Positions 6,300 through 25,008 of a stretch of 35,613 bases of DNA are shown here, piece by piece. The first letter of the stretch is position 1. Each line of letters starts with the position of its first letter. The notes beneath the pieces are model-generated. The model worked only from the letters and a program-made list of their open reading frames with translations, did no database searches and was not told where the DNA came from. Origin of the DNA: Methanobacteriota archaeon (GTDB lineage Archaea; Thermoplasmatota; Poseidoniia; Poseidoniales; Thalassarchaeaceae); assembly GCA_002716085.1 (NCBI GenBank), contig PAYZ01000024.1, positions 1 through 35,613 on the forward strand, written 5' to 3'. The position numbers and the translations under genes were made by a program.

Positions 6300-7550
6300 G
6301 GAATAGTACGGAGCTCCCGATTCGGATATTCTCAGCAACTGGTTATACTTGGAAGTCCTATCTGAGCGTGCTGGGGCTCCTGTTTTTATCTGTCCGGAGT
6401 GGGTCCCTACTGCCAAGTCAGCAATAATGTCATCCGAAGTCTCCCCCGATCTATGGCTTATGATAGTTGCAAAGCCTGCTTCCTTTGCCGTTTCAATTAC
6501 TTGCATTGTTTCTGTTACCGTCCCTATCTGGTTTAGTTTAATCAAAATGGCATTTGAAGCGGATTCTTCGATGCCCCTCAACAGGCGGCTTTGGTTTGTT
6601 ACGTATAGGTCGTCACCCACAATCTGGATACGTTGCCCCTCTCTTGCAGTGAATTCTGACCAAGCCCCCCAGTCGTCCTCTCCAAACGGATCCTCGATCG
6701 ATACGATTGGGTAGTCATCTATCCAATTGGAATACACTTTACTGAGTTCAGAGCCGGAAAGTTTAGTCCCATCTATGTGATAATGACTGCCATCATAGAA
6801 CTCCTGGGCCGCAACGTCTAGAGCAATAGAGATCTGCTTTCCTTCGGTATAGCCAGCTTTGTTTATTGCCTCTAGGACAAATCTGAGTCCCTCTTCGTTT
6901 CTTGGTAGATTTGGCGTGAATCCCCCTTCGTCCCCAATGCCCACCAGAAGGTTCTCATCGCCCAGTATTGACTTTAGTGAGTGATAAACCTCTACACCGG
7001 CACGCAGAGCTTCGGAGAAGTTGTCAAAGCCGTGTGGTATGACCATAAACTCCTGGACATCGACATTCGAATTCGCGTGTGCTCCTCCATTGAGAATGTT
7101 CATCATTGGCACTGGTAGTGCAGTTTTTCCTGAGGCAGAAATTTTTTTCCACAGATCAATTGGATGAGCAGCACGAAGGCATGACATTGAGGTCCCAAGA
7201 ATTGCATTGGCGCCCAATCTAGACTTGTTTCTAGTTCCGTCCAATTCAATCAGTGCTGTGTCTATTTCGTCTTGTTTTGAGGGATCCATTCCCAAAAGTG
7301 CTTCTCTGATTTCACCATTGACGTTTGTTACTGCTTTACTTACGCCTCTTCCCATCCACTTATCTCCACCATCACGCAGTTCAACTGCCTCATGTGTCCC
7401 AGTACTCGCTCCCGATGGAACTGCGGCCCTACCAGCGAGTAAGCCATCTACGAAGCAGTCTACTTCGACAGTTGGGTTCCCCCTAGAATCCAATACTGCC
7501 CGAGCGGAGATGTCGCTGATAGCGGCACCCATTGGAGGGTCGGTAGGCAT
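6285..7550 (-). CDS. eno: Enolase (2-phosphoglycerate dehydratase)
   Basis: Glycolysis/gluconeogenesis enzyme interconverting 2-phosphoglycerate and phosphoenolpyruvate; needs Mg2+. The 421-aa length is standard. Visible signatures include ARAVLDSRGNPTVEVD at the N-terminus, PSGASTGTHEA (mobile loop Ser), GDEGGFTPN, SIEDPFGEDDW and GDDLYVTN (metal ligands), the catalytic Lys in LIKLNQIGT, and SHRSGET. ATG at 7550 is used; ATG at 7532 (MGAAISDIS) would fit the usual N-terminus slightly better. It follows the Cys-rich gene at 7580 by 29 nt on the same strand, so the two may share a promoter in the 8012-8152 divergent region. Its 3' end overlaps the DHS-family gene. Confidence 0.97.
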   Translation of the reverse strand: MPTDPPMGAAISDISARAVLDSRGNPTVEVDCFVDGLLAGRAAVPSGASTGTHEAVELRDGGDKWMGRGVSKAVTNVNGEIREALLGMDPSKQDEIDTALIELDGTRNKSRLGANAILGTSMSCLRAAHPIDLWKKISASGKTALPVPMMNILNGGAHANSNVDVQEFMVIPHGFDNFSEALRAGVEVYHSLKSILGDENLLVGIGDEGGFTPNLPRNEEGLRFVLEAINKAGYTEGKQISIALDVAAQEFYDGSHYHIDGTKLSGSELSKVYSNWIDDYPIVSIEDPFGEDDWGAWSEFTAREGQRIQIVGDDLYVTNQSRLLRGIEESASNAILIKLNQIGTVTETMQVIETAKEAGFATIISHRSGETSDDIIADLAVGTHSGQIKTGAPARSDRTSKYNQLLRISESGAPYYSLFQR

Positions 7551-7579
7551 CGTGCATGTGAAGGTAGCGCATTGATACT

Positions 7580-8011
7580 CTATGAGTTAAGCCAACTAAG
7601 CCAACGGGAAACCTTACTCTGAATATCTGGAACTTCTAACTCCGATCTGCAACAACACTCCCAACATAGCTGCTCCTGATTTGGGGATATCGAGAAGAGC
7701 TCCGCTCGCATCAATATTCCTTCTGAATCTGGAGAGCTTCTATTATCATCAACGAAGCAATGAATTAGGTTCTTCGGATAGTGGTGGATTCTACCTGTGT
7801 CGGGACAACATAGAATTGCGCTTCTTCGTAGGAAGATCAGTGATGAGCCCGTTTGTTTATCTAGTTCGTGTCCAACTATCCTAGATCCATTTAGTAGGGC
7901 TGCAACGTCGACATTGTACCATTGAGAATGAGAGTGTGTGATGTCCATTTCCGAGACATCGTCAAGATACTCCTGAATTCTCAGTTGGGAGATGGCTTCC
8001 TCCCTATTCAT
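7580..8011 (-). CDS. Cys-rich conserved-looking protein of unknown function
   Basis: Not recognised. The 143-aa soluble product is mixed alpha/beta in appearance, with clustered cysteines: LCCPDTG in the middle and CWECCC near the C-terminus, plus several histidines (THSHSQW, RIHHYP). These could form a zinc or other metal site, or act as redox thiols. A start at ATG 8011 is preceded by GGTGG, a plausible ribosome binding site. It is the upstream partner of enolase (29 nt apart) and divergent from the Lrp-type regulator, which may control it. Confidence 0.6.
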   Translation of the reverse strand: MNREEAISQLRIQEYLDDVSEMDITHSHSQWYNVDVAALLNGSRIVGHELDKQTGSSLIFLRRSAILCCPDTGRIHHYPKNLIHCFVDDNRSSPDSEGILMRAELFSISPNQEQLCWECCCRSELEVPDIQSKVSRWLSWLNS

Positions 8012-8092
8012 ATGCCACCAAGTGCGGCCATCCCATTTGAATCAAACCAATAGTAATTCTTTTCAGGCTCTCTGAAAAACGGAAAACTACAG

Positions 8093-8105
8093 AAATAAAT
8101 TATAT
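8093..8105 (+). promoter_or_regulatory. TATA-like promoter element for the Lrp-type regulator
   Basis: An A/T-only run ending TTATAT (8100-8105) lies about 25 nt before a palindrome and about 50 nt before the ATG at 8153. The purine-rich CGGAAAACT just upstream could be a BRE. Archaeal start sites usually fall 24-27 nt downstream of the TATA centre, which puts transcription start near 8128. Confidence 0.5.
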
Positions 8106-8121
8106 CATTGCATCAAGAAAC

Positions 8122-8135
8122 AACAATAAATTGTT
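8122..8135. promoter_or_regulatory. Perfect palindrome, candidate Lrp-type operator
   Basis: AACAATAAATTGTT is a perfect inverted repeat (6-bp arms, 2-nt centre). It straddles the predicted transcription start of the adjacent Lrp/AsnC gene. Lrp-type regulators bind such A/T-centred palindromes and commonly repress their own genes, so this is a candidate autoregulatory site. Confidence 0.5.
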
Positions 8136-8152
8136 CATTTTTCGGAGAAACC

Positions 8153-8575
8153 ATGAGTAATGTTGACTCATTGGATAGATCGATTCTCACCTACCTAAGG
8201 GAATCAGCAAGGGCCCCTTATGTGGATATTGCGAAGAAAGTAGGAGTGACAGAGAGAACGGTTAGGACTCGAATCAAAAGGCTCGAGGAAGAGGGCATCA
8301 TCAGAGGTTACACAGTTAGGGAGGCTGGGATAGGCCTCACAGCACTAATTCGACTAAAGGTAGGCCCCGGAACTGAGATTGGTTCCCTAGCAGGAGAGTT
8401 CTCTGGTTGGCAGGGGGTGGAGTGTGTGTACGAAATTAGTGGGGATGCGGATCTTGTAGCGGTGGTGCACGTTGACGATACGGTTGCTCTCAGAGACATG
8501 CTTGACAAGATGTGGCTAGCTGCTCCTGGAGACATCAGCTCTACTCAAACAGAGCTGGTTCTTGAGCAGTACTAA
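8153..8575 (+). CDS. Lrp/AsnC family transcriptional regulator
   Basis: Feast/famine regulator. The N-terminal winged helix-turn-helix is clear: LDRSILTYLRESARAPYVD, then AKKVGVTERTVRTRIKRLEEEGIIRGYTV with the recognition helix. The C-terminal RAM/ligand domain follows (ALIRLKVGPGTE ... VYEISGDADLVAVVHV). From ATG 8153 it has 140 aa, normal for the family. This start has a GGAG Shine-Dalgarno at 8144-8147; the in-frame ATG at 8108 lies upstream of the predicted transcription start and is unlikely. A palindrome at 8122-8135 suggests autoregulation. The effector amino acid is unknown; the Cys-rich/eno pair on the other side of the divergent region may also be controlled. Confidence 0.9.
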   Translation: MSNVDSLDRSILTYLRESARAPYVDIAKKVGVTERTVRTRIKRLEEEGIIRGYTVREAGIGLTALIRLKVGPGTEIGSLAGEFSGWQGVECVYEISGDADLVAVVHVDDTVALRDMLDKMWLAAPGDISSTQTELVLEQY

Positions 8576-8578
8576 TTC

Positions 8579-9418
8579 CTATTCTTTTGAAAGAAGATAC
8601 CTGAAGTACTTGATTCTGCCAGATTTGAGAGCTTCGTATATGGGTGTACCGGGGACGCCCCCGAATGTCTCGAAGCTCTTCCTAAGTGATCTGGGAGCAC
8701 TCTTGCGAATCATCATCTTCCTGTCCTCTTCAATTAAATTCAATGCATCAATTACATTTCCAGTTACATCTCTACTGGTTTCTACTACGAATCCTGCTTC
8801 GGTGAACTGAGCTTCCATATTTTCCATTGTTGATTGATCTCGCATGTCTGTCCAACAAAGATTACCTCCAGGAATTAATACTCTGAAAGCTTCACTAAGA
8901 AATTTCGGGATGTCGCCGTAGCAGTGAGATGACTCTACATTGTAGACTATGTGGAAAGACTCATCTGGTAGTGGGAGCATCTCTGCGTTTCCGGTAATGA
9001 ACTCGAGGTTTTCCTGACTGGAGTACCAATTCGAGCAAAGCTTGACTGCTTCTCCAGAATAGTCTACAGCGACCAGTCTCTCGGGAGAAAATGTCTTTGC
9101 AATCCAACTAGCACCCCCTCCCCTCCCTGAGCCAACCTCCAGAACATGCTTATCTTTGAGAGAGACGTCTCTGACATTCATTTCGTAAAGCTGAATGAAT
9201 AGTCTGTCCTTTTCGTCCTCTTCATCGAGATTGACCTCGAAATCATCAATGTACCCGTAATTCATGAACCTGAAAGTTGGATCAGTTTGTGATTTTGCCA
9301 TTCTCTGGTATAGCCTATTCCACATTCTACTTCTGATTCTAGGAGGAGCGATTCTCATTAGGAGATAAAATGCCCTTGCAGGTAAGCCCATTGCCAAGGT
9401 AGCACCTAAGCCTTCCAC
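8579..9418 (-). CDS. SAM-dependent methyltransferase, class I
   Basis: Rossmann-fold methyltransferase (Methyltransf_11-like). The SAM-binding motif I is HVLEVGSGRGGGASW (about residues 97-111); LVAVDYSGEAV is motif II, ITGNAEMLPLPDESFHIVY is motif III/IV, and RVLIPGGNLCW is the post-strand motif. The overall pattern, with a hydrophobic N-terminal ~30 residues and NLDEEDEKDRLFIQLYEMN, resembles phthiotriol/polyketide- or lipid-type O- and C-methyltransferases, so a hydrophobic substrate such as a quinone or lipid is plausible. Its ATG lies 13 nt inside the upstream thioredoxin-fold gene, which suggests coupled translation, and its stop is 3 nt from the convergent Lrp gene. Confidence 0.85.
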   Translation of the reverse strand: MEGLGATLAMGLPARAFYLLMRIAPPRIRSRMWNRLYQRMAKSQTDPTFRFMNYGYIDDFEVNLDEEDEKDRLFIQLYEMNVRDVSLKDKHVLEVGSGRGGGASWIAKTFSPERLVAVDYSGEAVKLCSNWYSSQENLEFITGNAEMLPLPDESFHIVYNVESSHCYGDIPKFLSEAFRVLIPGGNLCWTDMRDQSTMENMEAQFTEAGFVVETSRDVTGNVIDALNLIEEDRKMMIRKSAPRSLRKSFETFGGVPGTPIYEALKSGRIKYFRYLLSKE

Positions 9419-9960
9419 TTGACCGAACAGCCGATACTCTCCGTCCTAGGTAATGAAACAATGTTTCCAGACAATAGATCTGCAATTGCGTCTTCTAGTT
9501 CAGAGGTTGTTGCATGGGAGGGGTCGCGAGGAGAGTCATCCATCCTACCCCTGTATACAACCTCACCATCTGGTCGCAAAAGATAGAATTCGGGAGTTCT
9601 CTCTGCTCCGTAAGAAAGTGCTACTTCCCGAGATGCGTCGTGAAGATATGGATAGCTCATGCCTCTGTCTGCCCTTTTTACCATATTTTCCCAGGAGTCG
9701 GATTCGTAATTTACTGGGTCGTTGGAGTTGATTCCTGCGAATCCGATCCCTTCCTTCCTAGAAAGATCTGCTATCTTTTCTATTCGGGGCTCCGATCCAA
9801 CAACGTAAGGGCAGTGATTGCAAGTGAAGAAGACTATAGCTCCATTTTCTCCCATTACATCAGATAGGGTCATATTTCCATTTCCTGAGTTTGAATTGGC
9901 GTTTGGCAGACTGAAGTCTGGGGCTCTTGAGCCGGGCTCTACAGATTGGGCAATGTGCAT
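9406..9960 (-). CDS. Thioredoxin-fold (AhpC/TSA-like) redoxin
   Basis: Peroxiredoxin/thioredoxin-like protein of 184 aa. The N-terminal GSRAPDFSLPN and LSDVMGENGAIVFFTCNHCPY give the redoxin fold with a CxxC-type CNHC motif at the start of helix 1. This CNHCPYV signature is typical of a thioredoxin-family group related to peroxiredoxins. The cis-Pro loop is in ERTPEFYLL, followed by VVYRGRMDDSP. It may be a peroxidase or a disulfide reductase; substrate unknown. No signal peptide, so likely cytoplasmic. It sits 25 nt after the TPR gene and overlaps the methyltransferase by 13 nt, in the dnaG-TPR-redoxin-methyltransferase run. Confidence 0.85.
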   Translation of the reverse strand: MHIAQSVEPGSRAPDFSLPNANSNSGNGNMTLSDVMGENGAIVFFTCNHCPYVVGSEPRIEKIADLSRKEGIGFAGINSNDPVNYESDSWENMVKRADRGMSYPYLHDASREVALSYGAERTPEFYLLRPDGEVVYRGRMDDSPRDPSHATTSELEDAIADLLSGNIVSLPRTESIGCSVKWKA

Positions 9961-9985
9961 ACTAGACCGACATTGATAGAGCAGT

Positions 9986-12283
9986 TCAATCCTTTGGAAG
10001 GGTTGTCTCTCTGCCTACAACCATGCGATCTCTGCACTCTTCAAGCCTTCTTCTGGAGAGTCTATGCTGGGGGTCAACATCCAGAACCCTCCTCCATGCA
10101 GAGGCTGCTTTCTCTGGATCTCCCTCCTCATGTAGGATTGCAGCAATTCTCAGCATAGCATCAATGTGTTGAGGATCTGAATTTACTGCGCCTTCAAAGT
10201 CAGAAAGAGCCTCATCGGACCTCCCGAAGTCCAAGTATAGAAGGCCTCTCTGGTACCTAGCCTCAGATAGCTCGGGATTTTCTTCGATTGCTTTGTTTAG
10301 TGGTTTTTCGGCTTGCTCAGACCGGCCCCGGGCAATCATGCAAGTTCCAAGATGTACGAGGCCCATAGAATGGTTGGGATTCATCTGTAGAAGGTTTCCT
10401 AGCTCTTCTTGAGCTGCAGCCCAGTCACCTTGATTCATTAGGATCTCAGATCTTCTGAGTCGTGCTAGTTCATGGTTTGGTCTGGATTCTACTAATCGAT
10501 TTGCGTCATCTAGAGCCATAGAAAGGTCGTCGCATAGCAGTGCTGCAGAGGAGCGATTCAGCCTTGCTCGAGAGTGGTCTGGATCGATCTGAAGAGCCGT
10601 TGTGAAGAAGTTCTTTGCTTCTTCGATCCTTCCCAGTCTTGCAGAAATAATTCCTCGTATGAATGGGACTGTTGGGTTATTATTCAGAATGGTAGTAGCC
10701 TCCAGAGAAAGGGCGTTTGCTTGTTCGAGATCACCAACTTCCAGAGATAGCTGAGCTTCTTCAAGAGGTATTGATGGATGGTCAGGGATTAGCCTCCTAG
10801 CCCTAACTAGTGCCACTTCTGCCTCATCAAAAGAACCCTGATACCTCAGGGCCCGGGCCCTCCCTAGCCAAGCCAGGCCTGATTCTCGGTCGATTTGTAT
10901 CGCCTTTTCGAAAGACACGAGGGCATCAATAATTGGCAAAGGATCTAGTCTTCCTGTTTCGTCTCTGATATTCTCAGACTCCACTAGAGATAGTCTGCCC
11001 TTCATTACGTGCATTGTTGCTGAATCCCAAGATTCCTCGGGTGCATCATCTAGGGTCCTCTTGGATGATTCTGTAGCCCCCTTGCTGAGCCAAATCTGGC
11101 TTAGTTTACCCCTAGCTTCGGCATCTCCCGGAGTCTTGGTCAGATGCTCATCTAGTACTTCTATTGCAGCGTCTGTTCTTCCATCATTCTCTAGAATCTC
11201 GGATTCCATTACTACGGTGTACTCGCCAAGAGCGTGTGCTCGTCTAATGCACTTTAACGCGTCCTTAGTTCCACCCTTGCCTGCAGCCAGAAGTCTTGCC
11301 TTTAGTGCCCATGCTTGGCCAAAATTCGTATCATATTCTATTGCCTTTTCCACGGATTCAGTCGCAGCACTAATCTCCCCAATGAGCAGTTGCTTTGCTG
11401 CACGCTCTACCAACCTGTTTGCACTAAGTGGTTGGCCAGAAAGAGATTTCTCGCCATCTATCGACTCTCTGGCTCTCTGGGCAATCTGCGATAGTTCGGA
11501 TTGTTCTTGTGAAGCTTCTGAAGAGATTCCGAGAGCATCTAGCCTCTTTCTATTCCTACTAATTCTATCATCTTCTCTTCCATCTAATAGCAATGTCTGC
11601 TCTTCGAGAACACTGACGTCGTCGGGAGTGATTGCCAGCAATCTCTCCAGAGTTCTGTCTAGAGCTTCCAAATCGCCATTCTCTCTTTGGATAGAAGATA
11701 GCGCCCGCAATGAAGATTCGTCTTCCGGATTCAAATCATTGGCCCTCTGGAAGCAATCTTCGGCCCAGTCATACCTGTTTACCAGATGGAACAATTCACC
11801 AAGCCTCCTGTGCTCTCCAGCAGAAAGCTCGACGTCCTCGGCTTTCATCTCAGCTTCAGTCAGAATTGCAGATAGTCTCTTTGTGAGGGGTTTTAGGCCG
11901 GAAATCGGTTTTTCTCCATGTTCAATTCCGGGTTCTGGATAGTGCTCAAGCAATGACTTTGCAGCATGAGAGGCTATTGCGCATGCCTCGCTGTTGCTCA
12001 CTGGAATGCCCTGATTGAACAGAAGGGATTCTGCTGACTCCAAGGATCTGTGAACTCCTAGAAGATAGTGCACTTCTGGAGAGTCGGAAAGAATGGTATC
12101 TACTCCTCGTGAGAGCAGATCTAGACTCTCAGAAGTCTTGCTTAGATTACCTTTCATTGAGCCAAGCTTGAATGCCATCTTCTCCCTTTGTCTAAGAACT
12201 GATTTGTGTTTCATCCAAAGTGCAAATAATGCTACAGACAGGACACCATAGAGAGTTAGGATCGCCATAGTGGTGTCTTGCAT
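9986..12283 (-). CDS. Membrane-anchored TPR repeat protein
   Basis: Scaffold-type protein of 765 aa. After Met-Gln-Asp-Thr-Thr comes one transmembrane helix (AILTLYGVLSVALFALWM), then a charged coiled region. The rest is a long array of tetratricopeptide repeats with typical A--Y-P and AL-DP signatures, such as NPEDESSLRALSSI, QIDRESGLAWLGRARALRY, QIDPDHSRARLNRSSA and NSDPQHIDAMLRIAAIL. At least ten repeats are plausible. ATG 12283 is preferred: an in-frame TTG at 12382 would add 33 residues that do not look coding. TPR arrays bind partner proteins, and membrane anchoring suggests assembly of a complex at the cytoplasmic membrane. It lies downstream of dnaG, but no specific link is shown. Confidence 0.85.
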   Translation of the reverse strand: MQDTTMAILTLYGVLSVALFALWMKHKSVLRQREKMAFKLGSMKGNLSKTSESLDLLSRGVDTILSDSPEVHYLLGVHRSLESAESLLFNQGIPVSNSEACAIASHAAKSLLEHYPEPGIEHGEKPISGLKPLTKRLSAILTEAEMKAEDVELSAGEHRRLGELFHLVNRYDWAEDCFQRANDLNPEDESSLRALSSIQRENGDLEALDRTLERLLAITPDDVSVLEEQTLLLDGREDDRISRNRKRLDALGISSEASQEQSELSQIAQRARESIDGEKSLSGQPLSANRLVERAAKQLLIGEISAATESVEKAIEYDTNFGQAWALKARLLAAGKGGTKDALKCIRRAHALGEYTVVMESEILENDGRTDAAIEVLDEHLTKTPGDAEARGKLSQIWLSKGATESSKRTLDDAPEESWDSATMHVMKGRLSLVESENIRDETGRLDPLPIIDALVSFEKAIQIDRESGLAWLGRARALRYQGSFDEAEVALVRARRLIPDHPSIPLEEAQLSLEVGDLEQANALSLEATTILNNNPTVPFIRGIISARLGRIEEAKNFFTTALQIDPDHSRARLNRSSAALLCDDLSMALDDANRLVESRPNHELARLRRSEILMNQGDWAAAQEELGNLLQMNPNHSMGLVHLGTCMIARGRSEQAEKPLNKAIEENPELSEARYQRGLLYLDFGRSDEALSDFEGAVNSDPQHIDAMLRIAAILHEEGDPEKAASAWRRVLDVDPQHRLSRRRLEECRDRMVVGRETTLPKD

Positions 12284-12387
12284 CGACCCGAGCGGACATG
12301 AGAGACTTTTGATGGCTTCTGCTGAGCTTGGCCCCGAGAAGGGCTTTATCGCCAGAGCTTCGGCTCGCCGGCAAGTTATCAAACGAG

Positions 12388-13557
12388 CTATTCCAAGTCA
12401 CTAACTGAGTAAGCTTGCACCCCTAATTTGAGTGTCTGTGGTCCTACAGTTTTACCCACTACGTTGTTTATTCCAGCTCCTGAAGCGAGTTCGTGAATCC
12501 TATCGGTAACTTTTCCTGAAAAGATGAGGCCCTTTGCCCCTTCAGTCCCGCTTAGTGCGGTCTCCAGATCCTTTGCGCTTACGGGATCGGAGCCAGAGCC
12601 ATCCTCGAGTACAATCACTGCTTGGTTTCTCTTTAGGCCATCCATCAATGGGGCCCATCCCTTTACGACATCTGGAGCCTCAAGAGACGGCTTTCCCTTA
12701 CCTACTGAAGCATCATCATCTTTCTGGATCTCGGTTTGGATTCTAGCCACTGCCTTGGAAGCCGGTTCCTTCTGTCCTAGGCACTTTGTAACTACCTTCC
12801 CCTCGAGGTGTTCTACCTCTCGACTCTGTGGGGCGAATGCAACGTGAGTTAGAGATTTGCCCAGGGTTCCACTTATTTCCATTAGGAGTAGCTTGCCCCC
12901 TCTGTCCCCGTCTAGAAAGGCGGTAACGGTCTTCTTCTTAGAGGCTAGATCTGCGAGCTGCGGCTTTATTCCAGAACCCATGGTTGCAATAGCATTGTTA
13001 ATTCCATACTTCAGTAGATTTCGGACATCGTTTCTACCTTCGACTATTATGATCGCGTCCGAATTCTTTACGTTCGGCCCAGCGGTCATTTCTTCAAAGT
13101 CGATCTCGGTATCTAGAGTAAGCACGGCCCTTACCTCATCTAGTATGTTCTTAGACTCGCCAGATGCGGAGTTTACAATTCCTAGCGGGAGTTCCTTGGC
13201 TCTATCTATGACGTGATCCCTCTTGGCAGAACGGATGTTCTCGATTTCCTTGACCTTGATTACTGCCTTGCAAGGGCCGATGCGATCTATGGTTTCGAGA
13301 GCTGCTCCGATCACGGCAGTGCTTACCTGATCTATAGAAGATGACACTTCTATCTGGCCCTGAACTCTTCCCTTGTGGTTGTTCAGATTTACATCGACAT
13401 GGCCTATTCTTCCCGTTCTCTGAAGTTTCCTCAGTTGTAATCCCTCCCCTAGGAGGCCCTCGGTCTGACCAAAGATTGCTCCAACTACGTCCTTCCGAGC
13501 TACTGTTCCGTCGACTCTAATGGTTGCGTGTATGACATATTTTCCTTCACTTGACAT
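12388..13557 (-). CDS. dnaG: Archaeal DnaG-type primase / exosome-associated protein
   Basis: Archaeal DnaG homologue. In archaea it is chiefly known as a component of the RNA exosome and has some primase activity in vitro. The 389-aa protein has the archaeal N-terminal domain (KYVIHATIRVDGTVARKDVVG, QLRKLQRTGRIGH) in place of the bacterial zinc finger. A Toprim domain follows at about residues 168-250: Glu173 in IIIVEGRNDVRNLL and Asp216/Asp218 in FLDGDRGG are the metal-binding carboxylates. The middle and C-terminal parts carry the usual ELASGAGINNVVGKT ending. Upstream lies a GC-rich hairpin region (13578-13706) that may be part of its leader. It is the first gene of a minus-strand run that includes the TPR, redoxin and methyltransferase genes. 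Confidence 0.96.
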   Translation of the reverse strand: MSSEGKYVIHATIRVDGTVARKDVVGAIFGQTEGLLGEGLQLRKLQRTGRIGHVDVNLNNHKGRVQGQIEVSSSIDQVSTAVIGAALETIDRIGPCKAVIKVKEIENIRSAKRDHVIDRAKELPLGIVNSASGESKNILDEVRAVLTLDTEIDFEEMTAGPNVKNSDAIIIVEGRNDVRNLLKYGINNAIATMGSGIKPQLADLASKKKTVTAFLDGDRGGKLLLMEISGTLGKSLTHVAFAPQSREVEHLEGKVVTKCLGQKEPASKAVARIQTEIQKDDDASVGKGKPSLEAPDVVKGWAPLMDGLKRNQAVIVLEDGSGSDPVSAKDLETALSGTEGAKGLIFSGKVTDRIHELASGAGINNVVGKTVGPQTLKLGVQAYSVSDLE

Positions 13558-13581
13558 GTTTATTCATTCCTGTTGCCTCTC

Positions 13582-13705
13582 GGCCCCCAAACGGGGCCTT
13601 GCCCCCTTTTTCGCCATCTTGGCGGGGGGGTTCGGATGGGCGCAAGGCGCCCGCGAGTAGGGCTGATTAGCATTCTTTCGGGTGATAGGGGGCTTCATGA
13701 ATGCT
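13582..13705. other. GC-rich cluster of four hairpins between dnaG and the next gene
   Basis: Non-coding stretch with four consecutive inverted repeats: (1) GGCCCC-CAAAC-GGGGCC at 13582-13598; (2) CGCCA-TCT-TGGCG at 13612-13624, extended by CCCCC (13602-13606) and GGGGG (13625-13629) around a 5-T bulge; (3) GGGCGC-AAG-GCGCCC at 13638-13652; (4) AGCATTC ... GAATGCT at 13669-13705. The GC content is far above the surroundings. It could be a small structured RNA, or the 5' leader of dnaG on the minus strand. Strand and identity are not decided by the sequence. I found no RNase P, SRP or tRNA signature. Confidence 0.4.
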
Positions 13706-13778
13706 CCTGTTCTAACATAAGGTGCGTTTCTGGCCCCACATACCTAGTCGTTAAGTCATATTGCTTAGGTGGAGGGTC

Positions 13779-14258
13779 GTGGAAGAAGTCGTCGATGACC
13801 GCTCAAGAGTTTTCTTGAAATCGACCAGATTAGCATTGAGGGATGGTCAGTTATCGAACGGGGAAAAAAGAATTCTGGTCAAGTTATCACACGCGCTCAG
13901 GCTAGGCGATGATGAGCCCCTGAGAATCTACGATTCCATCCTTGCAAAAAACACCGAATCAATCCACGGAGATTCGATAGAAGTAAGTGAAATGAGGTTG
14001 GTATATGGACAAGTGCTAGAGGCTATGCTGATTCACACAGATAGGTCGGAGGAGGTTCTGGAGCAGATCGCATACCTGAGGAAGATGTTTGGAATCGAGG
14101 ATTCGGAACATCGAGCTATAGCCCGAAGTTTGGACAGAAACTTGGAAGAAATCGTTCATCGATCTTTTATTGATGAGTTCAGAATGCATCTAAGAGACTC
14201 TGTGGACAGGGTGGGTCAAATCTTCGATAGCGTCAAAATACTTGCCCGGAAAGAGTAG
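13779..14258 (+). CDS. Helical protein with TerB-like N-terminal pattern, unknown
   Basis: Function not known. About 159 aa from the GTG at 13779, which has AGGTGGAG a few bases upstream; a TTG at 13761 is the alternative. The segment LALRDGQLSNGEKRILVKLSHALRLG resembles the TerB-type helical repeat, in which an Asp-Gly and a Glu precede a hydrophobic helix, so a TerB-like or related metal-binding helical domain is possible. The rest is predicted alpha-helical and charged. It is the first gene of a plus-strand run followed 5 nt later by another helical protein, then a 75-aa protein and mobA, suggesting an operon. Confidence 0.6.
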   Translation: MEEVVDDRSRVFLKSTRLALRDGQLSNGEKRILVKLSHALRLGDDEPLRIYDSILAKNTESIHGDSIEVSEMRLVYGQVLEAMLIHTDRSEEVLEQIAYLRKMFGIEDSEHRAIARSLDRNLEEIVHRSFIDEFRMHLRDSVDRVGQIFDSVKILARKE

Positions 14259-14263
14259 GACAG

Positions 14264-14914
14264 ATGACTGGTGCCCAGCTGTTGGATGACTTTCTGGAAT
14301 CTCAGCCCAATGGCATTCACAAATCTCACAGAAAGTTGGCCAAATTAGTTCGAGAGGCATACCCGATAGGGGTTCCAGCATTGATTATGAAATCAAGTAC
14401 TGATCGCCTGGGAGCTTCGGCGGGTTATTCTTTCCACCTAGGCACTCCTGACGATCTTCTCAGGAGGATTGCTTCTTGGCTTTTCACAATGGCTGGGGAA
14501 AGACAGGTGGTCCTTAGAAGGCTGATACCTGCTCTGTGGAATAGGCATGGTAGGGAAGATGTGGCTCTGGCCGCACTAATCCTTGCAAACTTGGATCACA
14601 AGATGCTCGAGACAAATCCATGGGAAATTTTGGCCTCTTCCATAAATGACACGGAGCCTGCGGAAGCTCTTCTTCTCAGTATAGAAGAGATTCTTAGAGC
14701 AGGGCATTCCAAGCCGAGTATGCAGCAATTGAGGGGTTGGTGCGGAGGAAGGCTTGTTGAGTCCCATTTGGCACTAATTTCGGTCTTCGCATCTAGTAAA
14801 CAAGGAGTGTCCATTGAAGACGAGGCGGTGGCCCTCCTAACTTCCGTAGAGATTCCTAACGAAGACTCTCTGCTAAGCAGAATTAGAGATAGGATCGCGA
14901 GCGAAGCACCATAG
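14264..14914 (+). CDS. Alpha-helical protein, possibly HEAT-like, unknown
   Basis: Not securely recognised. The 216-aa product is almost entirely predicted helix with repeating hydrophobic patterns (PDDLLRRIASWLF, RQVVLRRLIPALW, DVALAALILANL, EALLLSIEEIL, LVESHLALISVF). This would fit a HEAT-like or DNA alkylation repair-like solenoid, but no catalytic residue set can be assigned. The ATG follows the upstream stop by 5 nt with AGGA before it. It lies in the run 13779-15720 and probably works with its unknown neighbours. Confidence 0.6.
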   Translation: MTGAQLLDDFLESQPNGIHKSHRKLAKLVREAYPIGVPALIMKSSTDRLGASAGYSFHLGTPDDLLRRIASWLFTMAGERQVVLRRLIPALWNRHGREDVALAALILANLDHKMLETNPWEILASSINDTEPAEALLLSIEEILRAGHSKPSMQQLRGWCGGRLVESHLALISVFASSKQGVSIEDEAVALLTSVEIPNEDSLLSRIRDRIASEAP

Positions 14915-14927
14915 AGCTAATCCGCAA

Positions 14928-15155
14928 ATGCCGTTTCTGAGGAGTGTGCCGGAACGCCTGCTACCTTCAGATGACCCCGTAGCCGAGGAAGTCTTGGAAT
15001 GGACAATTAAGAGAGACTCGCAAGACATTTCCCAGCTAATGGAATGGCTCGGAGAAACATCCGTAAGAAAGGATAGGGAGATTTTGATTGACAGAGCAAT
15101 GGATCTGATGGAAGAAATCAGGCATGCCATGAGGCGTTTGGATGAACTAAGGTGA
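14928..15155 (+). CDS. Small acidic helical protein, unknown
   Basis: Not recognised. The 75-aa product is predicted as two helices, the second with a heptad-like pattern ending RHAMRRLDELR. It starts 13 nt after the previous stop without a clear ribosome binding site and ends 4 nt before the TTG start of the mobA-like gene. Its position within a tight same-strand run and its coding-like composition support a real gene. Confidence 0.5.
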   Translation: MPFLRSVPERLLPSDDPVAEEVLEWTIKRDSQDISQLMEWLGETSVRKDREILIDRAMDLMEEIRHAMRRLDELR

Positions 15156-15159
15156 GCAG

Positions 15160-15720
15160 TTGCGTTCTCTCATTCTGGCTGGAGGGAGATCCTCTAGAAT
15201 GGGGTCCGACAAAGCCCTTTTTAGAATTGAGGGGGAAGCTATGATTTCTAGGATTGCGAATGCGCTTTCTAGTGCAAATCTAGAGCCCATCCGAGTTGCA
15301 GTTTCTCGCCCAGAAGACGTTGAAAACTATGGAGTTGAAATTCAAGGAGATATTGAGTTGGAATGGGTCCTGGATGGTGAATCATATGCAGGACCTATTG
15401 AAGCAATTTTAGAAGCCCTTATTGACCCTAAGATAGAGGATTGCGAAGTTTTGCAGTTAGCTCCAGTTGACTGCCCATGGGTGACAAAAGAGCTTTTTTT
15501 CTCACTTCGAGAAGGTATCGGAGAGGATGACTCCCTGATTATGCCTCACGATGGAGAGCGCTCTCATCCTCTCCTAGCTTTAGTCCGTCCAGATAGGATT
15601 TTGAAACTGATTGATAGCGATAGACGGCCTCTTCATAAGCAATTTTCTGAAACAAAGCATTCTCTTCTTGTTGAAGACCCACGAGTATTGAAGAACATAA
15701 ATTCAGTACAAGACCTATAG
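15160..15720 (+). CDS. MobA-like nucleotidyltransferase (molybdenum cofactor guanylyltransferase family)
   Basis: NTP-transferase of the MobA/GlmU N-terminal fold, which in MobA attaches GMP to molybdopterin. The N-terminal nucleotide-binding motif SLILAGGRSSRMGSDKAL is diagnostic. LQLAPVDCPWV corresponds to the metal-binding D-x-P segment (LVVPCDMP in MobA), and DDSLIMPHDGERSHPLLALV matches the family's HP-LGLY segment. Length is 186 aa, normal for MobA. The start is a TTG four bases after the upstream stop. No molybdoenzyme is in this window, although a MOSC-domain protein lies at 28834-29298. A related CMP- or GMP-transferase role on another substrate is possible. The 3' end overlaps purN by 6 nt. 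Confidence 0.82.
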   Translation: MRSLILAGGRSSRMGSDKALFRIEGEAMISRIANALSSANLEPIRVAVSRPEDVENYGVEIQGDIELEWVLDGESYAGPIEAILEALIDPKIEDCEVLQLAPVDCPWVTKELFFSLREGIGEDDSLIMPHDGERSHPLLALVRPDRILKLIDSDRRPLHKQFSETKHSLLVEDPRVLKNINSVQDL

Positions 15721-16350
15721 TGTGATTTTTCCTAAGCAGTATTTGTCTATAGTTTCCGGGTATAATTCGTGTTCCAGATTCTTTACTCTTTCCTGTAATG
15801 AGAATTCGTTGTCCCCTGTTAGAACGGGAACTTCTCTCTGAGCTATTATTGGGCCTGTATCAACGCCCTCATCGACCAAGTGGACGGTACAACCCGTAGT
15901 GCTAACCCCTGAAGAAATTACATCCCTGTGGGGATGAGCCCCTGGGAAATGAGGGAGCAGAGACGGGTGGATATTGACCATACGTCCCTTCCAGATTCGT
16001 ACAAACCAAGGTGTAAATATTCTCATGTATCCACTAAGTACTACAAACTCGACTTGTGAATTCTCGAGTTCTTTTTGAACAAGTTCTTCATGGGCTGATC
16101 TCTGTTCTTTCTTATCCCCAATAGGAGGAAGGGGGATTGCCTTGGTCGTAATTCCCTTGTTCCTACCGTGCTCCAGTCCTCCTGCATCCTCTTTGTCTGA
16201 TAATACTAGCACAGTTTTGTGACACCTAATTTCTTCTGATTGGTATTTCAACAGTGCTAGTAGACCAGAACCTCCTCCTGAAATCAGGACGGCGATCCTC
16301 AATGGGTTTTCTGGAGATGCTCTCCTTGGGGGAGTCTCGGTGGTGCCCAT
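15715..16350 (-). CDS. purN: Phosphoribosylglycinamide formyltransferase
   Basis: Transfers a formyl group from 10-formyltetrahydrofolate to GAR in purine synthesis. The catalytic triad is visible: Asn126 and His128 in MVNIHPSLLP, and Asp164 in EGVDTGPIIAQ. IAVLISGGGSGL near the N-terminus binds GAR phosphate and LSGYMRIFTP is the folate-loop motif. The protein has 211 aa including a 16-residue N-terminal extension before the usual start. It is a folate-dependent enzyme and, with PurH at 20398-21981, indicates the bacterial-type one-carbon route for purines. It converges on and overlaps the mobA-like gene by 6 nt. Confidence 0.95.
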   Translation of the reverse strand: MGTTETPPRRASPENPLRIAVLISGGGSGLLALLKYQSEEIRCHKTVLVLSDKEDAGGLEHGRNKGITTKAIPLPPIGDKKEQRSAHEELVQKELENSQVEFVVLSGYMRIFTPWFVRIWKGRMVNIHPSLLPHFPGAHPHRDVISSGVSTTGCTVHLVDEGVDTGPIIAQREVPVLTGDNEFSLQERVKNLEHELYPETIDKYCLGKITL

Positions 16351-16432
16351 GCTACTGTGGCATAGGCATCTCGCTTGAGGGTTCGTAAAGGCTCAACTTA
16401 AACAGAAATTACCGCTCCCCCTTGATGATAGT

Positions 16433-16924
16433 GTGGAGAGATTGGATAATCTCGACGAAATTGTTCAGAAATACTGTGTTTCCAATAGTTCATTGAGAAG
16501 AGTGTACGTTTCTCTTGGGTCAATTTTTGTCGTTTTCTCTGTGATTGGGATCTGGATTCCCGGATGGCCGACCGTCTCATGGGCTGTACCGGCAGCATTC
16601 CTATTTTCACAATCCAGTGAGAGGATGTTCAGGTGGTCGTTAACAAATCGCTATTTCGGAAGAGCCATGTTTGAATATTATGCGAGCGGTAAGACAATCC
16701 CTAGACATGCAAAATCTGGAATAATTGTCATGATTGTATTTATGACCCTTTTATCGGCAACGTTCGTTTGGTACGTTTCTACCCTAGGGGAAGGCAAGTG
16801 GTCGGACCCCGGCTCATGGGATGGAGCAGACCCGGGTTTCGGAGCTGCTACAATAGTTATTGTTGGCTTGGTCGGAGTGTGGTATGTTGGTTCGAGGGTT
16901 AGGACTCGTGATTCTGAGAGTTAG
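16433..16924 (+). CDS. DUF454/YbaN family membrane protein
   Basis: Integral membrane protein of the DUF454 (YbaN) family, function unknown. The family signature is visible: a first helix with GIWIPGWPTVSWAVPAAFLF (family: G-LPLLPTTPFLLLA), then FSQSSERMFRWSL, NRYFG and KTIPRHAK, followed by a second helix region (IIVMIVFMTLLSATFVW) and a third near the C-terminus. It has 163 aa, about 40 longer than bacterial YbaN because of an N-terminal ~30 residues and the extra C-terminal helix. Start is a GTG at 16433. It is divergent from purN. Confidence 0.8.
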   Translation: MERLDNLDEIVQKYCVSNSSLRRVYVSLGSIFVVFSVIGIWIPGWPTVSWAVPAAFLFSQSSERMFRWSLTNRYFGRAMFEYYASGKTIPRHAKSGIIVMIVFMTLLSATFVWYVSTLGEGKWSDPGSWDGADPGFGAATIVIVGLVGVWYVGSRVRTRDSES

Positions 16925-16995
16925 CACTATCTCAATTATGCCAGAAGCACCACATCTGTCAGGGAGTTGAAATACCAATCCTCCTTAGTGCGAGT

Positions 16996-17706
16996 GTGAG
17001 GCTGTTTACGTTTGACAACTCCATCAGGGTTCCGACTAGGTGGCTTAGCCGTGAACAGAGGAAGAGGTACAAGAGCAATTCTCTGGGCATCCTCCATGAG
17101 CCGGAAGAGGAGGGTGTTTTTCTTGATGCTTTGAACTCCTTGCCTGCAGGAGGAGCTTACGTAAACATAGGAGCAGCATGGGGCTACTACTCACTGTTGG
17201 CGAAGAAAACTCGCCCGGAATTGGATGTTTTCGCAGTAGAAGCACACCCAAGGATGTGCAGTATGATTTACGAGGCTTCAATGATCAATCATATATCTGG
17301 GATTTCCGTAATCAATTCTGCAGTTGTGGGCAAAAACGAGATAGGAAGAAGAGAGATGCGGATAAAATTCGGCTATGGGGCTTCAGTGACCCCTGAAGAT
17401 TCCGTCAATAAGAATGAGTCGATTCGAGTAGGTCTGATTGATCTCGGAGTAATCCTTGGATCAATTCCTAATCCAGAGATTATGATCAGCATGGATGTGC
17501 AAGGTTCTGAGGAGGGGGTTTGCAGAGATTTAGCTACTCAACCCGAAATGGGGGCGCGCGTTTCGAAAATTATCGTAGGAACTCATGGAACCGAGCGACA
17601 CGATATTTGCAAGGAGATGCTAGAGAAATCTGGATTCTCGATTGATTTTGACGAGCCTGCCCCGTTAGAACAGCCCGATGGAATTATATTGGCTACAAAG
17701 AAGTAA
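16996..17706 (+). CDS. FkbM family methyltransferase
   Basis: SAM-dependent methyltransferase of the FkbM type, which methylate sugars or other hydroxyl groups, often in surface glycans. The SAM-binding segment is YVNIGAAWGYYSLLAKK (about residues 55-71), followed by VFAVEAHPRMCSMIY. MISMDVQGSEEGV is the FkbM signature (family: K-D-EG-E). It has 236 aa with a GTG start at 16996; no Shine-Dalgarno is seen, and GAAATACC about 25 nt upstream could be a TATA element for a leaderless transcript. It could act on glycans made by the sulfotransferase/glycosyltransferase genes at 25-27 kb, but it is not adjacent to them. Confidence 0.8.
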   Translation: MRLFTFDNSIRVPTRWLSREQRKRYKSNSLGILHEPEEEGVFLDALNSLPAGGAYVNIGAAWGYYSLLAKKTRPELDVFAVEAHPRMCSMIYEASMINHISGISVINSAVVGKNEIGRREMRIKFGYGASVTPEDSVNKNESIRVGLIDLGVILGSIPNPEIMISMDVQGSEEGVCRDLATQPEMGARVSKIIVGTHGTERHDICKEMLEKSGFSIDFDEPAPLEQPDGIILATKK

Positions 17707-17747
17707 GTGGAAGGCCTAGGCTCCCTTTTTACGTGGTAGCTAACTGA

Positions 17748-17767
17748 AACACTTTTCCAGTAGTGTT
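17748..17767. promoter_or_regulatory. Inverted repeat upstream of the cystathionine lyase/synthase gene
   Basis: AACACT and AGTGTT form perfect 6-bp arms separated by 8 nt, in the 82-nt gap before the ATG at 17789. It is a candidate operator or leader hairpin for the sulfur amino acid gene that follows. Confidence 0.3.
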
Positions 17768-17788
17768 ACCCGCAAGCGTTTGAGAGAA

Positions 17789-18931
17789 ATGAGGTTCGAC
17801 ACAGAAGCTGTAAGAGGTAGAAGCAAACCAGACCCGACAACAGGAGCTATTATTCCTCCAATTTACCAGACTGCAACATACGTTCTTGAAGAAATAGGAG
17901 TGGACAAGGGCTTCGACTATACCAGATCATCTAATCCTACTAGGCAGCATCTCGAAGAGCATCTCGCAGCCCTAGAAGGAGGTGCTCACGCCATAGCCTT
18001 CTCCAGCGGAATGGCGTGTGCAGATAGTTGTATGAAACTCCTAAGCAGTGGAGATCATGTCGTTTGTTGTGATGATGTCTACGGAGGTACTGCTCGCTTA
18101 TTCAATAACCTCATGACAAACTATGGAGTCGAGTTCACCTATGTTGATTCCCAGGATTCGGAAAACGTGGAAAGAGCGATTCGCCCTGAAACGAAGATGG
18201 TGTGGATAGAGACACCCACTAATCCTCTTCTAAAAATCACAGATTTGGATGCAGTGGGAAAAATCACCAAGAGTAATGGGCTTCTGTACGTTGTCGATAC
18301 TACCTTCGCGACTCCTGTATTTCTACGTCCTCTGGATTACGGAGCTGATTTAGTTCTACATAGTACAACGAAGTATCTCAGTGGCCATAACCAGATTATT
18401 GGAGGAGTATTGGTAACTAACAGAAGTGACCTCTTTGAGAAGCTGAAGTATATCCAGAAGAGCGTTGGTGCTGTTCCAAGTCCCTTTGACAGCTGGCTCA
18501 CAATTGTTGGACTGAAGACCCTACATGTTCGGATGCAGAGACATTGGGAGAACGCCGAGAAGATTGCTTCCTACTTGGAGAAGCACCCCAAGGTATCGAA
18601 GGTTGTCTACCCTGGACTGCAAACCCATCCAATGCACGAAGTTGCCAAGAAGCAAATGAGTGGATTCAGCGGGATGATCTCCTTCGAGCTTCAGGGGGGA
18701 TTAGACGCAGGAAAGAAGCTGATGAATTCTGTAGAGCTTTGTCTACTGGCTGAGAGCTTGGGAGCTGTAGAGACGATGATTACGCACCCAGCTACAATGA
18801 CTCATGCAGAGGTTCCTAGAGAGGAGAGGCTCGCTAGGGGGTTCGAGGACGGATTGGTTAGACTATCAGTGGGGATAGAAGATGCTGATGACCTGATAGC
18901 TGACCTCGAGAAGGCTTTCGAAAAGGTCTGA
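17789..18931 (+). CDS. Cystathionine gamma-lyase / gamma-synthase
   Basis: PLP enzyme of the Cys/Met metabolism family. From the ATG at 17789 it has 380 aa. The PLP lysine is Lys195 in LHSTTKYLSGH; FDYTRSSNPTRQ binds the PLP phosphate of the partner subunit, and FSSGMACAD and WIETPTNPLLKI are family motifs. The C-terminal AESLGAVETMITHPATMTHAEVP stretch matches bacterial MetB/YrhB-type enzymes. Cystathionine gamma-lyase (to cysteine), gamma-synthase and homocysteine lyase cannot be separated by sequence. Its direct pairing with a CBS-like gene (convergent, no gap) makes the reverse transsulfuration role (lyase) attractive. A TTG at 17780 is an alternative start. Confidence 0.88.
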   Translation: MRFDTEAVRGRSKPDPTTGAIIPPIYQTATYVLEEIGVDKGFDYTRSSNPTRQHLEEHLAALEGGAHAIAFSSGMACADSCMKLLSSGDHVVCCDDVYGGTARLFNNLMTNYGVEFTYVDSQDSENVERAIRPETKMVWIETPTNPLLKITDLDAVGKITKSNGLLYVVDTTFATPVFLRPLDYGADLVLHSTTKYLSGHNQIIGGVLVTNRSDLFEKLKYIQKSVGAVPSPFDSWLTIVGLKTLHVRMQRHWENAEKIASYLEKHPKVSKVVYPGLQTHPMHEVAKKQMSGFSGMISFELQGGLDAGKKLMNSVELCLLAESLGAVETMITHPATMTHAEVPREERLARGFEDGLVRLSVGIEDADDLIADLEKAFEKV

Positions 18932-19969
18932 CTAGTCCCAATCGTCTGGTTCCCAACCGTTTTCCCTAAGCCAATCGTCATTGTAGAACTTGGACAAGTA
19001 TGGGTTCCCTGCATCGGGAAGTATGGCAACTACCATTGCTTCCTCACCACTCTCATCGGCTTCCCTAGCAATGTCGATTGCAACCTTGATGGAGCCGCCG
19101 CAAGAACCGCCACAGAACATTCCTTCCTTTCTTGCAAGAGCCCGGGCCCATCGGAAGCACTCGCCATCGTCCACTTGGTGAATCTCGTCGATGGATGAAA
19201 AGTCGGTCGCAGATGGTATGAAGTCCTCTCCGAAGCCCTCTACCTTGTACGTATGCGGCTCCCCCATGGTTCCCTCTTCGAACCACTGTTTGAGAATCGA
19301 TCCTACGGCATCTACTCCGACTATCTTAGGTGGTGTCATAGCATTTGACTCGGCCATCTCCTTTAGCGACTTGGAGGTCCCGGAAATCGTCCCTCCCGTC
19401 CCCATAGTGGCTACGAAGTGAGTGATCTGGCCCGCAGTCTGTTCCCAAATCTCTGGTCCTGTCGTTAGGTAGTGAGTCAACGGATTTGCCTGATGCGAGT
19501 ATTGGTCGGGATACCATGCTCCGGGGATCTCTCTCGCCAGTCTAGCCGCAACTTCGTAGTATGAACGGGGATCCTCCTTCTCTACGGCAGTGGGACATAC
19601 GTGGACCTCGGCTCCCATGGCCCTGAGGAGGTCTATCTTCTCCTTGCTCATCTTGTCTGCCATAGTGAAGATGCAGCGGTACCCTCTCTGTGCTGCGACC
19701 ATCGCGAGTCCAATTCCGGTGTTTCCGGAAGTCCCCTCGACAATCGTCCCCCCTGGTTTCAGGAGTCCCTTCTCCTCTGCATCCAGAACCATTTGCAAAC
19801 CGATTCTATCCTTTATCGAGCCGCCGGGGTTGCACCTCTCTAGCTTGACCCAGACGGAGGACCCGCCCAGTCCCTCTGTAATTCTATTCAAACGAATTAG
19901 AGGAGTGTTGCCTATGGCTGAGACCAAGTCCTCATAGGTATTGGAACGAGGTTTTGGTGGGTTGGTCAC
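18932..19969 (-). CDS. Cystathionine beta-synthase-like PLP enzyme
   Basis: PLP fold type II enzyme of the cysteine synthase / cystathionine beta-synthase group, joining homocysteine and serine or making cysteine from an activated serine. Lys53 in CNPGGSIKDRIGL carries PLP. EGTSGNTGIGLA is the substrate loop and TMGTGGTISGTSK the phosphate loop. PDQYSHQANPLTHYLTTGPEIWEQT and KVEGFGEDFIPSATD are more like CBS than CysK. It has 345 aa and no C-terminal CBS domains, so it would be the catalytic core without the SAM-binding regulatory part. It abuts the convergent cystathionine lyase gene with no intervening base. It is downstream of the small membrane gene by 33 nt. Confidence 0.87.
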   Translation of the reverse strand: MTNPPKPRSNTYEDLVSAIGNTPLIRLNRITEGLGGSSVWVKLERCNPGGSIKDRIGLQMVLDAEEKGLLKPGGTIVEGTSGNTGIGLAMVAAQRGYRCIFTMADKMSKEKIDLLRAMGAEVHVCPTAVEKEDPRSYYEVAARLAREIPGAWYPDQYSHQANPLTHYLTTGPEIWEQTAGQITHFVATMGTGGTISGTSKSLKEMAESNAMTPPKIVGVDAVGSILKQWFEEGTMGEPHTYKVEGFGEDFIPSATDFSSIDEIHQVDDGECFRWARALARKEGMFCGGSCGGSIKVAIDIAREADESGEEAMVVAILPDAGNPYLSKFYNDDWLRENGWEPDDWD

Positions 19970-20002
19970 AGTGGTGCATCGAACCTCGCTGTATGATGGT
20001 TT

Positions 20003-20392
20003 TCACTGAGGGTTTCGTGTGGAGCTGTGGTAGACCCAGCCAGCAATGGGGACAATCCAGAGCCCGCCTGCTAGAAATCCTAGTAAAACCAATGTTGCAA
20101 GTGTTGTTAGATCTGAGTTTGGTGCTCCGAAAGATGCGCCCAGGAGTGGGAAAATGAATGTCATAATAGATACTGGAATCAATGTCTTAAGACCCGGGTC
20201 AAACCAACCCATGGATTGTGAGATTTTCTTGACTGCGAATGCAGAAAGAAAAATCATCCCGGCGAAGACGACGATAGCCGCTCCAAACGAAGGTGGTTCA
20301 AACCCGATCTTGACCATAATCAGTGATACTAACGCGGCCAATACTACTCCAGTTCCAGAACCCGCGGCCAAAGTTTGTTTCCAGTCAATCAT
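20003..20392 (-). CDS. Four-helix membrane protein, unknown
   Basis: Not recognised. The 129-aa product has about four hydrophobic segments (roughly residues 8-27, 35-54, 68-86 and 95-118) with short loops and few charged residues. It lies between purH (5 nt upstream, same strand) and the CBS-like gene (33 nt downstream), so it is probably in the same transcript. No functional motif is seen. Confidence 0.6.
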   Translation of the reverse strand: MIDWKQTLAAGSGTGVVLAALVSLIMVKIGFEPPSFGAAIVVFAGMIFLSAFAVKKISQSMGWFDPGLKTLIPVSIMTFIFPLLGASFGAPNSDLTTLATLVLLGFLAGGLWIVPIAGWVYHSSTRNPQ

Positions 20393-20397
20393 CCTAC

Positions 20398-21981: not shown

Positions 21982-22022
21982 GGGAATGCGTGAGTGCAAG
22001 AGGCTTGAAGGTTCGTGGTCGA

Positions 22023-23615: not shown

Positions 23616-23640
23616 GAATGCTTTGAGCGAAAATTAGGAG

Positions 23641-23666
23641 TATTTTATCCCCGAGAGGATAATATC
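23641..23666. promoter_or_regulatory. Back-to-back divergent TATA boxes (thermosome / surface protein)
   Basis: Minus-strand GGATAAAATA (23641-23650) lies about 27-30 nt before the thermosome ATG at 23615. Plus-strand GGATAATATC (23657-23666) lies about 28-35 nt before the ATG at 23694. Both distances fit near-leaderless transcripts. The two boxes form an imperfect palindrome (8 of 10 matching) around a 6-nt centre, so one factor could act on both. Confidence 0.55.
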
Positions 23667-23693
23667 TATGACATAGCTGAATTAGGCTTTTTC

Positions 23694-24647: not shown

Positions 24648-24651
24648 AGCA

Positions 24652-25008
24652 TCATCCTAGAACTGTGACCATCCAGCCAATAAATACTGAAGTCGAACCC
24701 GCCAAAGCCACTGAGGCAATATTCTGGAATCCAAATACAGAGGTGAATATATAGAACAGGAAGACAGTGAGTGAGAGTAATGTGAGTCCTTGCTTGGCTT
24801 GCTTCCAACCAATACCTGAGTGTTTCAAAGCATGTTCCCTGCCACCAATAGCTAGGACGATCAAGTACAGCGCTGAAAGTAAAATTGCGTGACCGATTGC
24901 CCAACCTAGAGAGTCACCAAATACATTGACCAAATCGTCTTGGAAGCTTCCCAGAACCATTGACGCAAAGTCAAACACAAAAGGATGGTATGGTGGTAGA
25001 TTTTTCAA
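24652..25008 (-). CDS. Three-helix membrane protein, unknown
   Basis: Not recognised. The 118-aa product has hydrophobic segments near residues 33-53, 73-92 and 96-117, with a basic loop (GGREHALKHSG) between the first and second. No motif assigns a function. Its stop lies 4 nt from that of the convergent surface-protein gene. About 110 nt separate its start from the divergent sulfotransferase gene. Confidence 0.6.
   Translation of the reverse strand: MKNLPPYHPFVFDFASMVLGSFQDDLVNVFGDSLGWAIGHAILLSALYLIVLAIGGREHALKHSGIGWKQAKQGLTLLSLTVFLFYIFTSVFGFQNIASVALAGSTSVFIGWMVTVLG

What the first reader, a model, noticed from the sequence alone, without database searches (positions are those of the whole stretch)
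13578..13706. Four consecutive hairpins in a GC-rich non-coding stretch upstream of dnaG
The 221-nt space between divergent dnaG and the gene at 13779 holds an island of very high GC with perfect stems of 6, 5 (+5 around a T5 bulge), 6 and 7 bp. Such a run is not expected of ordinary intergenic DNA at this base composition. It could be a small structured RNA or a long structured dnaG leader, possibly with feedback on this exosome-linked gene. Seen directly: the inverted repeats. Inferred: that they form in RNA.
Basis: partly seen in the sequence, partly recalled or inferred. Interest (0 to 1): 0.6.

Follow-up and report, generated by a model that had tools for sequence, protein, structure and literature searches.

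The report
Conserved structured dnaG mRNA leader
The hairpins sit in a roughly 150-base folded RNA at the front of the dnaG message, kept for a long time in marine archaea and with look-alike leaders in their wider phylum, which suggests (but does not prove) that these archaea control an RNA-decay protein through its own message.

Summary
The hairpins are real and belong to a conserved RNA on the dnaG strand (window about 13710 down to 13558, minus), ending at the dnaG Shine-Dalgarno. In close relatives the leader is 83% identical, against 42% at dnaG third codon positions and 50% in the rest of the intergenic space. A covariance model finds it in 77 of 194 Poseidoniales genomes. Of 80 hits, 78 lie just upstream of dnaG on its strand; the other two are weak. 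Hairpin P3 (13638-13652) is compensated C-G/U-A across relatives, and its wobbles are all G-U on the dnaG strand (26 to 0), which fixes the strand. It stays when the divergent neighbour genes are lost. There is no Rfam match; RNase P and SRP RNA lie elsewhere. Diverged versions occur in Poseidoniaceae. Marine group III and other Thermoplasmatota also have conserved or strongly folding dnaG leaders, but homology to this one is not shown. [quoted passage not shown] The leader is well supported; feedback is inference.

The parts
13558..13710 (-). structured 5' leader RNA of dnaG (about 150 nt); covariance model R1 match 13556-13710
   Evidence: R1 145 bits (the window is one of the sequences the model was built from); 83% identity in 18 relatives versus 50% for the rest of the intergenic space
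13694..13708 (-). conserved 5' motif AGGAGCNUUCAUGAA (GCAAAGYNUUCAAA in other genera), probable 5' end of the transcript
   Evidence: near-invariant columns in A1; AT-rich peak 26-32 bases upstream across relatives, weak in the window itself
13662..13671 (-). hairpin P2 (GCUAAUCAGC); other sequences in relatives
   Evidence: GC/CG/AU/GU at the closing pair, 13 G-U against 0 A-C; middle pair broken in 26 of 65
13654..13658 (-). conserved ACUCG 5' of P3; pairs with a 3' segment near P5 in some genera
   Evidence: near-invariant columns; long-range pairing supported in groups B and E only
13638..13652 (-). hairpin P3, the best supported helix
   Evidence: 97.7% of cells paired; C-G 33, U-A 28, U-G 4; G-C 57, A-U 8; 26 G-U against 0 A-C
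13602..13630 (-). hairpin P4 (GCC/GGC inner stem, CCCCC/GGGGG outer stem)
   Evidence: inner pairs 80% with some compensation; outer stem only 51% paired over the family
13582..13598 (-). hairpin P5 (GGCCCC/GGGGCC) just 5' of the Shine-Dalgarno
   Evidence: 85% paired, GC to UA changes; largely lost in group E
13568..13571 (-). Shine-Dalgarno AGGA of dnaG
   Evidence: AGGAG/GGAGG-like in all 56 aligned relatives
12388..13557 (-). dnaG (archaeal DnaG, TOPRIM)
   Evidence: NF003108 361 bits, cut-off 300; Toprim
13751..13755 (+). TTAAG box, probable promoter element of the divergent gene, not part of the leader
   Evidence: conserved at varying distance from the leader, close to the divergent start; inference

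Best explanation
The island encodes a structured 5' leader of the dnaG mRNA, about 150 nt, transcribed from the minus strand and ending at the dnaG Shine-Dalgarno. Shown: conservation, helix P3, strand, single copy, constant adjacency to dnaG. Inferred: transcription begins at the AGGAGCNUUCAUGAA motif. Inferred mechanism: DnaG, an RNA-binding cap subunit of the archaeal exosome, alone or in the exosome, binds this leader and lowers its own translation or mRNA life, much as E. coli RNase E does through the rne 5' UTR. My estimate: cis-acting dnaG leader 0.9; autoregulation by DnaG or the exosome 0.45.
For: Strong conservation: leader 83%, third codon positions of dnaG 42%, rest of the intergenic region 50%. 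Covariation: 98 cells with both sides changed over all helices, against 40 +/- 8.6 in shuffles, 0 of 500; slid structures score lower (alignment fitted to the model). P3 wobbles 26 G-U to 0 A-C on the dnaG strand. 77 of 80 genome-wide hits within 175 nt upstream of dnaG on its strand, plus G074. Leader kept in group D, where the genes at 13779 and 14264 are gone. Shine-Dalgarno in all 56. Diverged versions upstream of dnaG in Poseidoniaceae and deep Thalassarchaeaceae. An Rrp41-like gene with a second RNase PH gene beside it in relatives. Sulfolobus DnaG binds RNA through its N-terminal domain and binds rRNA strongly (PMC4227792); E. coli feedback-regulates RNase E via the rne 5' UTR (abstract of PMC10989929).
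Against: No transcript data were available. The Shine-Dalgarno is only partly occluded in predicted folds (mean accessibility 0.60), so no clear off-state is visible. Leader folding energy is only mildly unusual and does not tell the strands apart (z about -1.5 and -1.7). P4 outer stem, P1 and long-range pairings differ between genera. The model finds nothing in front of other genes, so no shared regulon points to the regulator.
Confidence: 0.6

Rival explanations
1. The leader is a cis-regulatory RNA, but its regulator is something else: a small molecule or ion (a riboswitch), or another RNA-binding protein. It would control dnaG translation or mRNA stability in response to that signal.
For: Multi-helix leader next to a Shine-Dalgarno with conserved primary motifs looks like an orphan riboswitch or ribosomal-protein-type leader. 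In groups B and E the 5' and 3' segments pair better with each other than with those of other genera.
Against: No Rfam match in the window or in representatives. A single gene with no metabolic role gives no ligand hint. The sequence diverges fast between genera, unlike most aptamers.
Confidence: 0.3
2. A discrete small RNA that merely lies upstream of dnaG and acts in trans.
For: Compact folded element; a probable transcription start at its 5' end.
Against: Always immediately 5' of dnaG, same strand, no copy elsewhere; its 3' end runs into the Shine-Dalgarno; no terminator-like end seen in the sequence.
Confidence: 0.07
3. A conserved DNA element (protein-binding palindromes or a bidirectional promoter) rather than RNA.
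For: Divergent gene pair; palindromic stems; single-sequence folding does not favour a strand.
Against: Wobbles in P2 and P3 are 39 G-U to 0 A-C, which DNA palindromes do not predict; kept when the divergent genes are lost; the intergenic part next to the divergent gene is poorly conserved.
Confidence: 0.04
4. The RNA is on the plus strand, as a leader or small RNA of the divergent gene at 13779.
For: Plus-strand folding is as stable as the minus.
Against: Strand asymmetry of P2 and P3 wobbles; divergent gene absent in group D while the element stays; TTAAG box next to the divergent start implies a start downstream of the element (inference).
Confidence: 0.02

Closest known systems
rne 5' UTR autoregulation of RNase E (E. 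coli)
   Same: Structured 5' leader in front of a gene for an RNA-decay factor, plausible feedback by the product
   Different: Different domain of life and protein (DnaG is an RNA-binding exosome subunit, not an endonuclease); feedback not tested here; no sequence relation examined
Orphan riboswitch-like structured leaders (Rfam cis-regulatory families)
   Same: Covarying helices, conserved short motifs, ends at a Shine-Dalgarno
   Different: No Rfam match at gathering or relaxed thresholds; no ligand hint; faster divergence
Autoregulatory leaders of ribosomal proteins
   Same: Protein product binds rRNA (shown for Sulfolobus DnaG) and could bind an mRNA site
   Different: No rRNA mimicry shown; product is not a ribosomal protein

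Membership tests
Cis-acting structured mRNA leader | Same strand as, and directly upstream of, one gene in many genomes | tested here: met
   77 of 80 hits within 175 nt upstream of dnaG on its strand, plus G074
Cis-acting structured mRNA leader | Helices supported by compensatory change | tested here: met
   P3 clearly; P2, inner P4 and P5 partly; outer P4 not
Cis-acting structured mRNA leader | Present in the dnaG transcript | not testable with these tools
   no RNA-seq reads available
Autoregulatory leader (RNase E type) | Gene product binds the leader | not testable with these tools
   needs binding assays
Autoregulatory leader (RNase E type) | Product level changes expression through the leader | not testable with these tools
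   needs reporters in a genetically tractable archaeon
Known riboswitch or any Rfam family | Covariance model match | tested here: not met
Archaeal RNase P RNA (RF00373) | Model match at this locus | tested here: not met
   no match in the window; in relatives the family lies at other places
Archaeal SRP RNA (RF01857) | Model match at this locus | tested here: not met
   no match in the window; own genome has a partial match on C13, relatives elsewhere

The most novel reading that the evidence does not exclude
An ancient regulatory leader of dnaG spans the phylum Thermoplasmatota: fast-evolving in sequence, with a helix closing next to the Shine-Dalgarno in several families and UCAC-rich motifs in others, through which the archaeal exosome senses and limits its own DnaG subunit. 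It would be the first feedback circuit for the archaeal RNA-decay machine that I know of.
Probability: 0.25. Interest if true: 0.85.

Novelty: new variant of a known kind. Interest (0 to 1): 0.6.

Why it matters
Archaeal RNA decay is poorly understood at the level of control, and DnaG's double life (primase-like fold, exosome subunit) is debated. A conserved leader on dnaG gives a concrete handle: if the exosome or DnaG binds it, regulation of the archaeal exosome becomes directly testable, with a possible parallel to bacterial RNase E. It also adds a structured RNA family from abundant, uncultured marine archaea that is absent from Rfam.

Tried and rejected
RNase P RNA and SRP RNA (found elsewhere or not at this locus). 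Known Rfam families, strict and relaxed: only chance hits. A universal long-range closing helix (P1/PX) in the family: cross-group duplex test supports it clearly only in groups B and E. Column mutual information on the raw alignment was dominated by clade structure. An upstream ORF at AGGAG..AUG: the AUG is absent in several genera, where the motif reads UUCAAA (read), so set aside; no coding test was run. Folding energy as a strand test: uninformative. Tetramer enrichment over the whole phylum with a 160-nt cut: weak, and it cut off the f17 motif; repeated with longer leaders. Literature: no paper in the held library joins DnaG, archaeal exosome and autoregulation; a Red Sea transcription-start paper does not mention dnaG. 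Searches outside the phylum were not possible.

Full report
Setting. The window is a contig of a metagenome-assembled genome that groups with Candidatus Thalassarchaeaceae (marine group IIb, order Poseidoniales, phylum Thermoplasmatota): its best dnaG relatives carry those names. The gene at 12388-13557 (minus) is archaeal DnaG (NF003108, 361 bits). The divergent protein at 13779 has a weak, below-cut-off ENT match. Organism names for families f16, f17 and so on are not given by the tools.

The observation. Region 13578-13706 is 63% GC in a 48% GC window and holds perfect stems of 6, 5 and 6 bp (13582-13598, 13612-13624, 13638-13652) and a 7-bp stem with a long loop (13669-13675 with 13699-13705). 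By itself this is only suggestive: three hairpins of at least 5 bp against 1.3 in shuffles, p = 0.083, energy z about -2.

Comparison. The intergenic regions of same-genus genomes align well over the leader. In 18 relatives the leader is 83% identical to the window, P3 region 93%, while dnaG third codon positions are 42% and the remaining intergenic bases 50%. Over the family, P3 shows compensated pairs (C-G 33, U-A 28, U-G 4; G-C 57, A-U 8) with 97.7% of cells paired; all helices together have 98 doubly changed cells against 40 +/- 8.6 in shuffles (0 of 500), and the slid controls are lower. That alignment was fitted to the model; on the unfitted MAFFT alignment P3 shows the same pair types, and P5 exceeds most shuffles for doubly changed cells and covariation (8 and 4 of 500 reach it) but not for pair types. 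P2, inner P4 and P5 are partly supported; outer P4 is not. The 7-bp stem is not kept.

Strand. In P2 and P3, wobble cells are G-U on the dnaG strand 39 times and A-C never; P5 is 32 to 19 and P4 uninformative. Folding energy does not separate the strands. The covariation therefore points to an RNA on the dnaG strand. Every one of 56 relatives has a Shine-Dalgarno-like AGGA/GGAG between the element and the dnaG start. An AT-rich peak lies 26-32 bases upstream of the conserved 5' motif over the family, as expected of a TATA box for a start at the motif; in the window itself it is not obvious.

Adjacency. Model R1 finds matches in 77 of 194 Poseidoniales genomes at E up to 1. Compared with dnaG positions, 77 of 80 hits lie upstream of dnaG on its strand, within 175 nt; one more (G074) does so; the two left over are weak (E 0.14 and 0.74). 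In group D genomes the genes at 13779 and 14264 are missing and another gene is the neighbour, yet the leader stays. In L059-L063 the divergent gene lies farther off.

Reach. Deep Thalassarchaeaceae and Poseidoniaceae have diverged versions at the same place (weak model hits next to dnaG). Marine group III (family f3, same class; the name is my inference) dnaG leaders are also strongly conserved, with different sequence. In other Thermoplasmatota, dnaG leaders show recurrent features: in f16/f34 a helix GAAAAAURGCAC...GUGCUAUUUUUC that closes 5' of the Shine-Dalgarno; in f17, 29 of 29 leaders examined carry two or more UCAC within 26 nt (7% expected from shuffles, 0 on the antisense strand), usually as UUCAC-UAUCAC-AAUCAC. 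Similar UCAC clustering appears in f11, f24, f34 and half of f2, but not in f5, f6, f27, f29, f30 or most of f1, f3 and f16. Homology between these leaders and the window's is not shown; they are alike in place, not proven alike in descent. No Rfam match in any tested.

Mechanism. DnaG in Sulfolobus is an RNA-binding subunit of the exosome cap; its N-terminal domain binds RNA with poly(A) preference and the protein binds rRNA strongly (PMC4227792). Exosome iCLIP in Sulfolobus finds crosslinks clustering at 5' ends of RNAs (PMC7667871). Relatives of the window have an Rrp41-like gene with a second RNase PH gene next to it (only 12 of 40 genomes pass the curated cut-off for Rrp41). Feedback of an RNA-decay factor through its own 5' UTR is known for E. 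coli RNase E (PMC10989929). So autoregulation by DnaG or the exosome is a reasonable, unproven reading. Other regulators are not excluded.

Limits. Genomes are mostly incomplete metagenome assemblies; R1 E-values are rough; the window is itself in the model's training set; no transcript data; no search outside the phylum.

Noticed in passing
L275-L304 (family f17), about 200 nt upstream of dnaG: Near-invariant UUCAC-UAUCAC-AAUCAC motif; two or more UCAC within 26 nt in 29 of 29 leaders examined (L283 gave no dnaG start), 7% expected. It resembles KH-type UCAY sites, from memory only.
   Followed up: partly
L245-L274 (f16/f34/f36), dnaG leader: Near-invariant helix GAAAAAURGCAC...GUGCUAUUUUUC closing just 5' of the Shine-Dalgarno, with G-U wobbles on the dnaG strand.
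   Followed up: partly
L190-L204 (f3, same class), 160-230 nt upstream of dnaG: Long, strongly conserved dnaG leader with different sequence (UAGGCC..GGCYAUUGACRGUAMUCAAUUCACGAA).
   Followed up: partly
window 7224-27223 and contig C1:1-20000 of the same assembly: Two contigs of this genome are 99.86% identical over at least 20 kb (28 mismatches, no gaps): redundant assembly or two strains.
   Followed up: yes
L075, L078, L081, L082, L084-L086, L088, L089, L091, L094 (group D): The two genes next to dnaG (13779 and 14264 in the window) are absent and the next gene (14928) has taken their place.
   Followed up: yes
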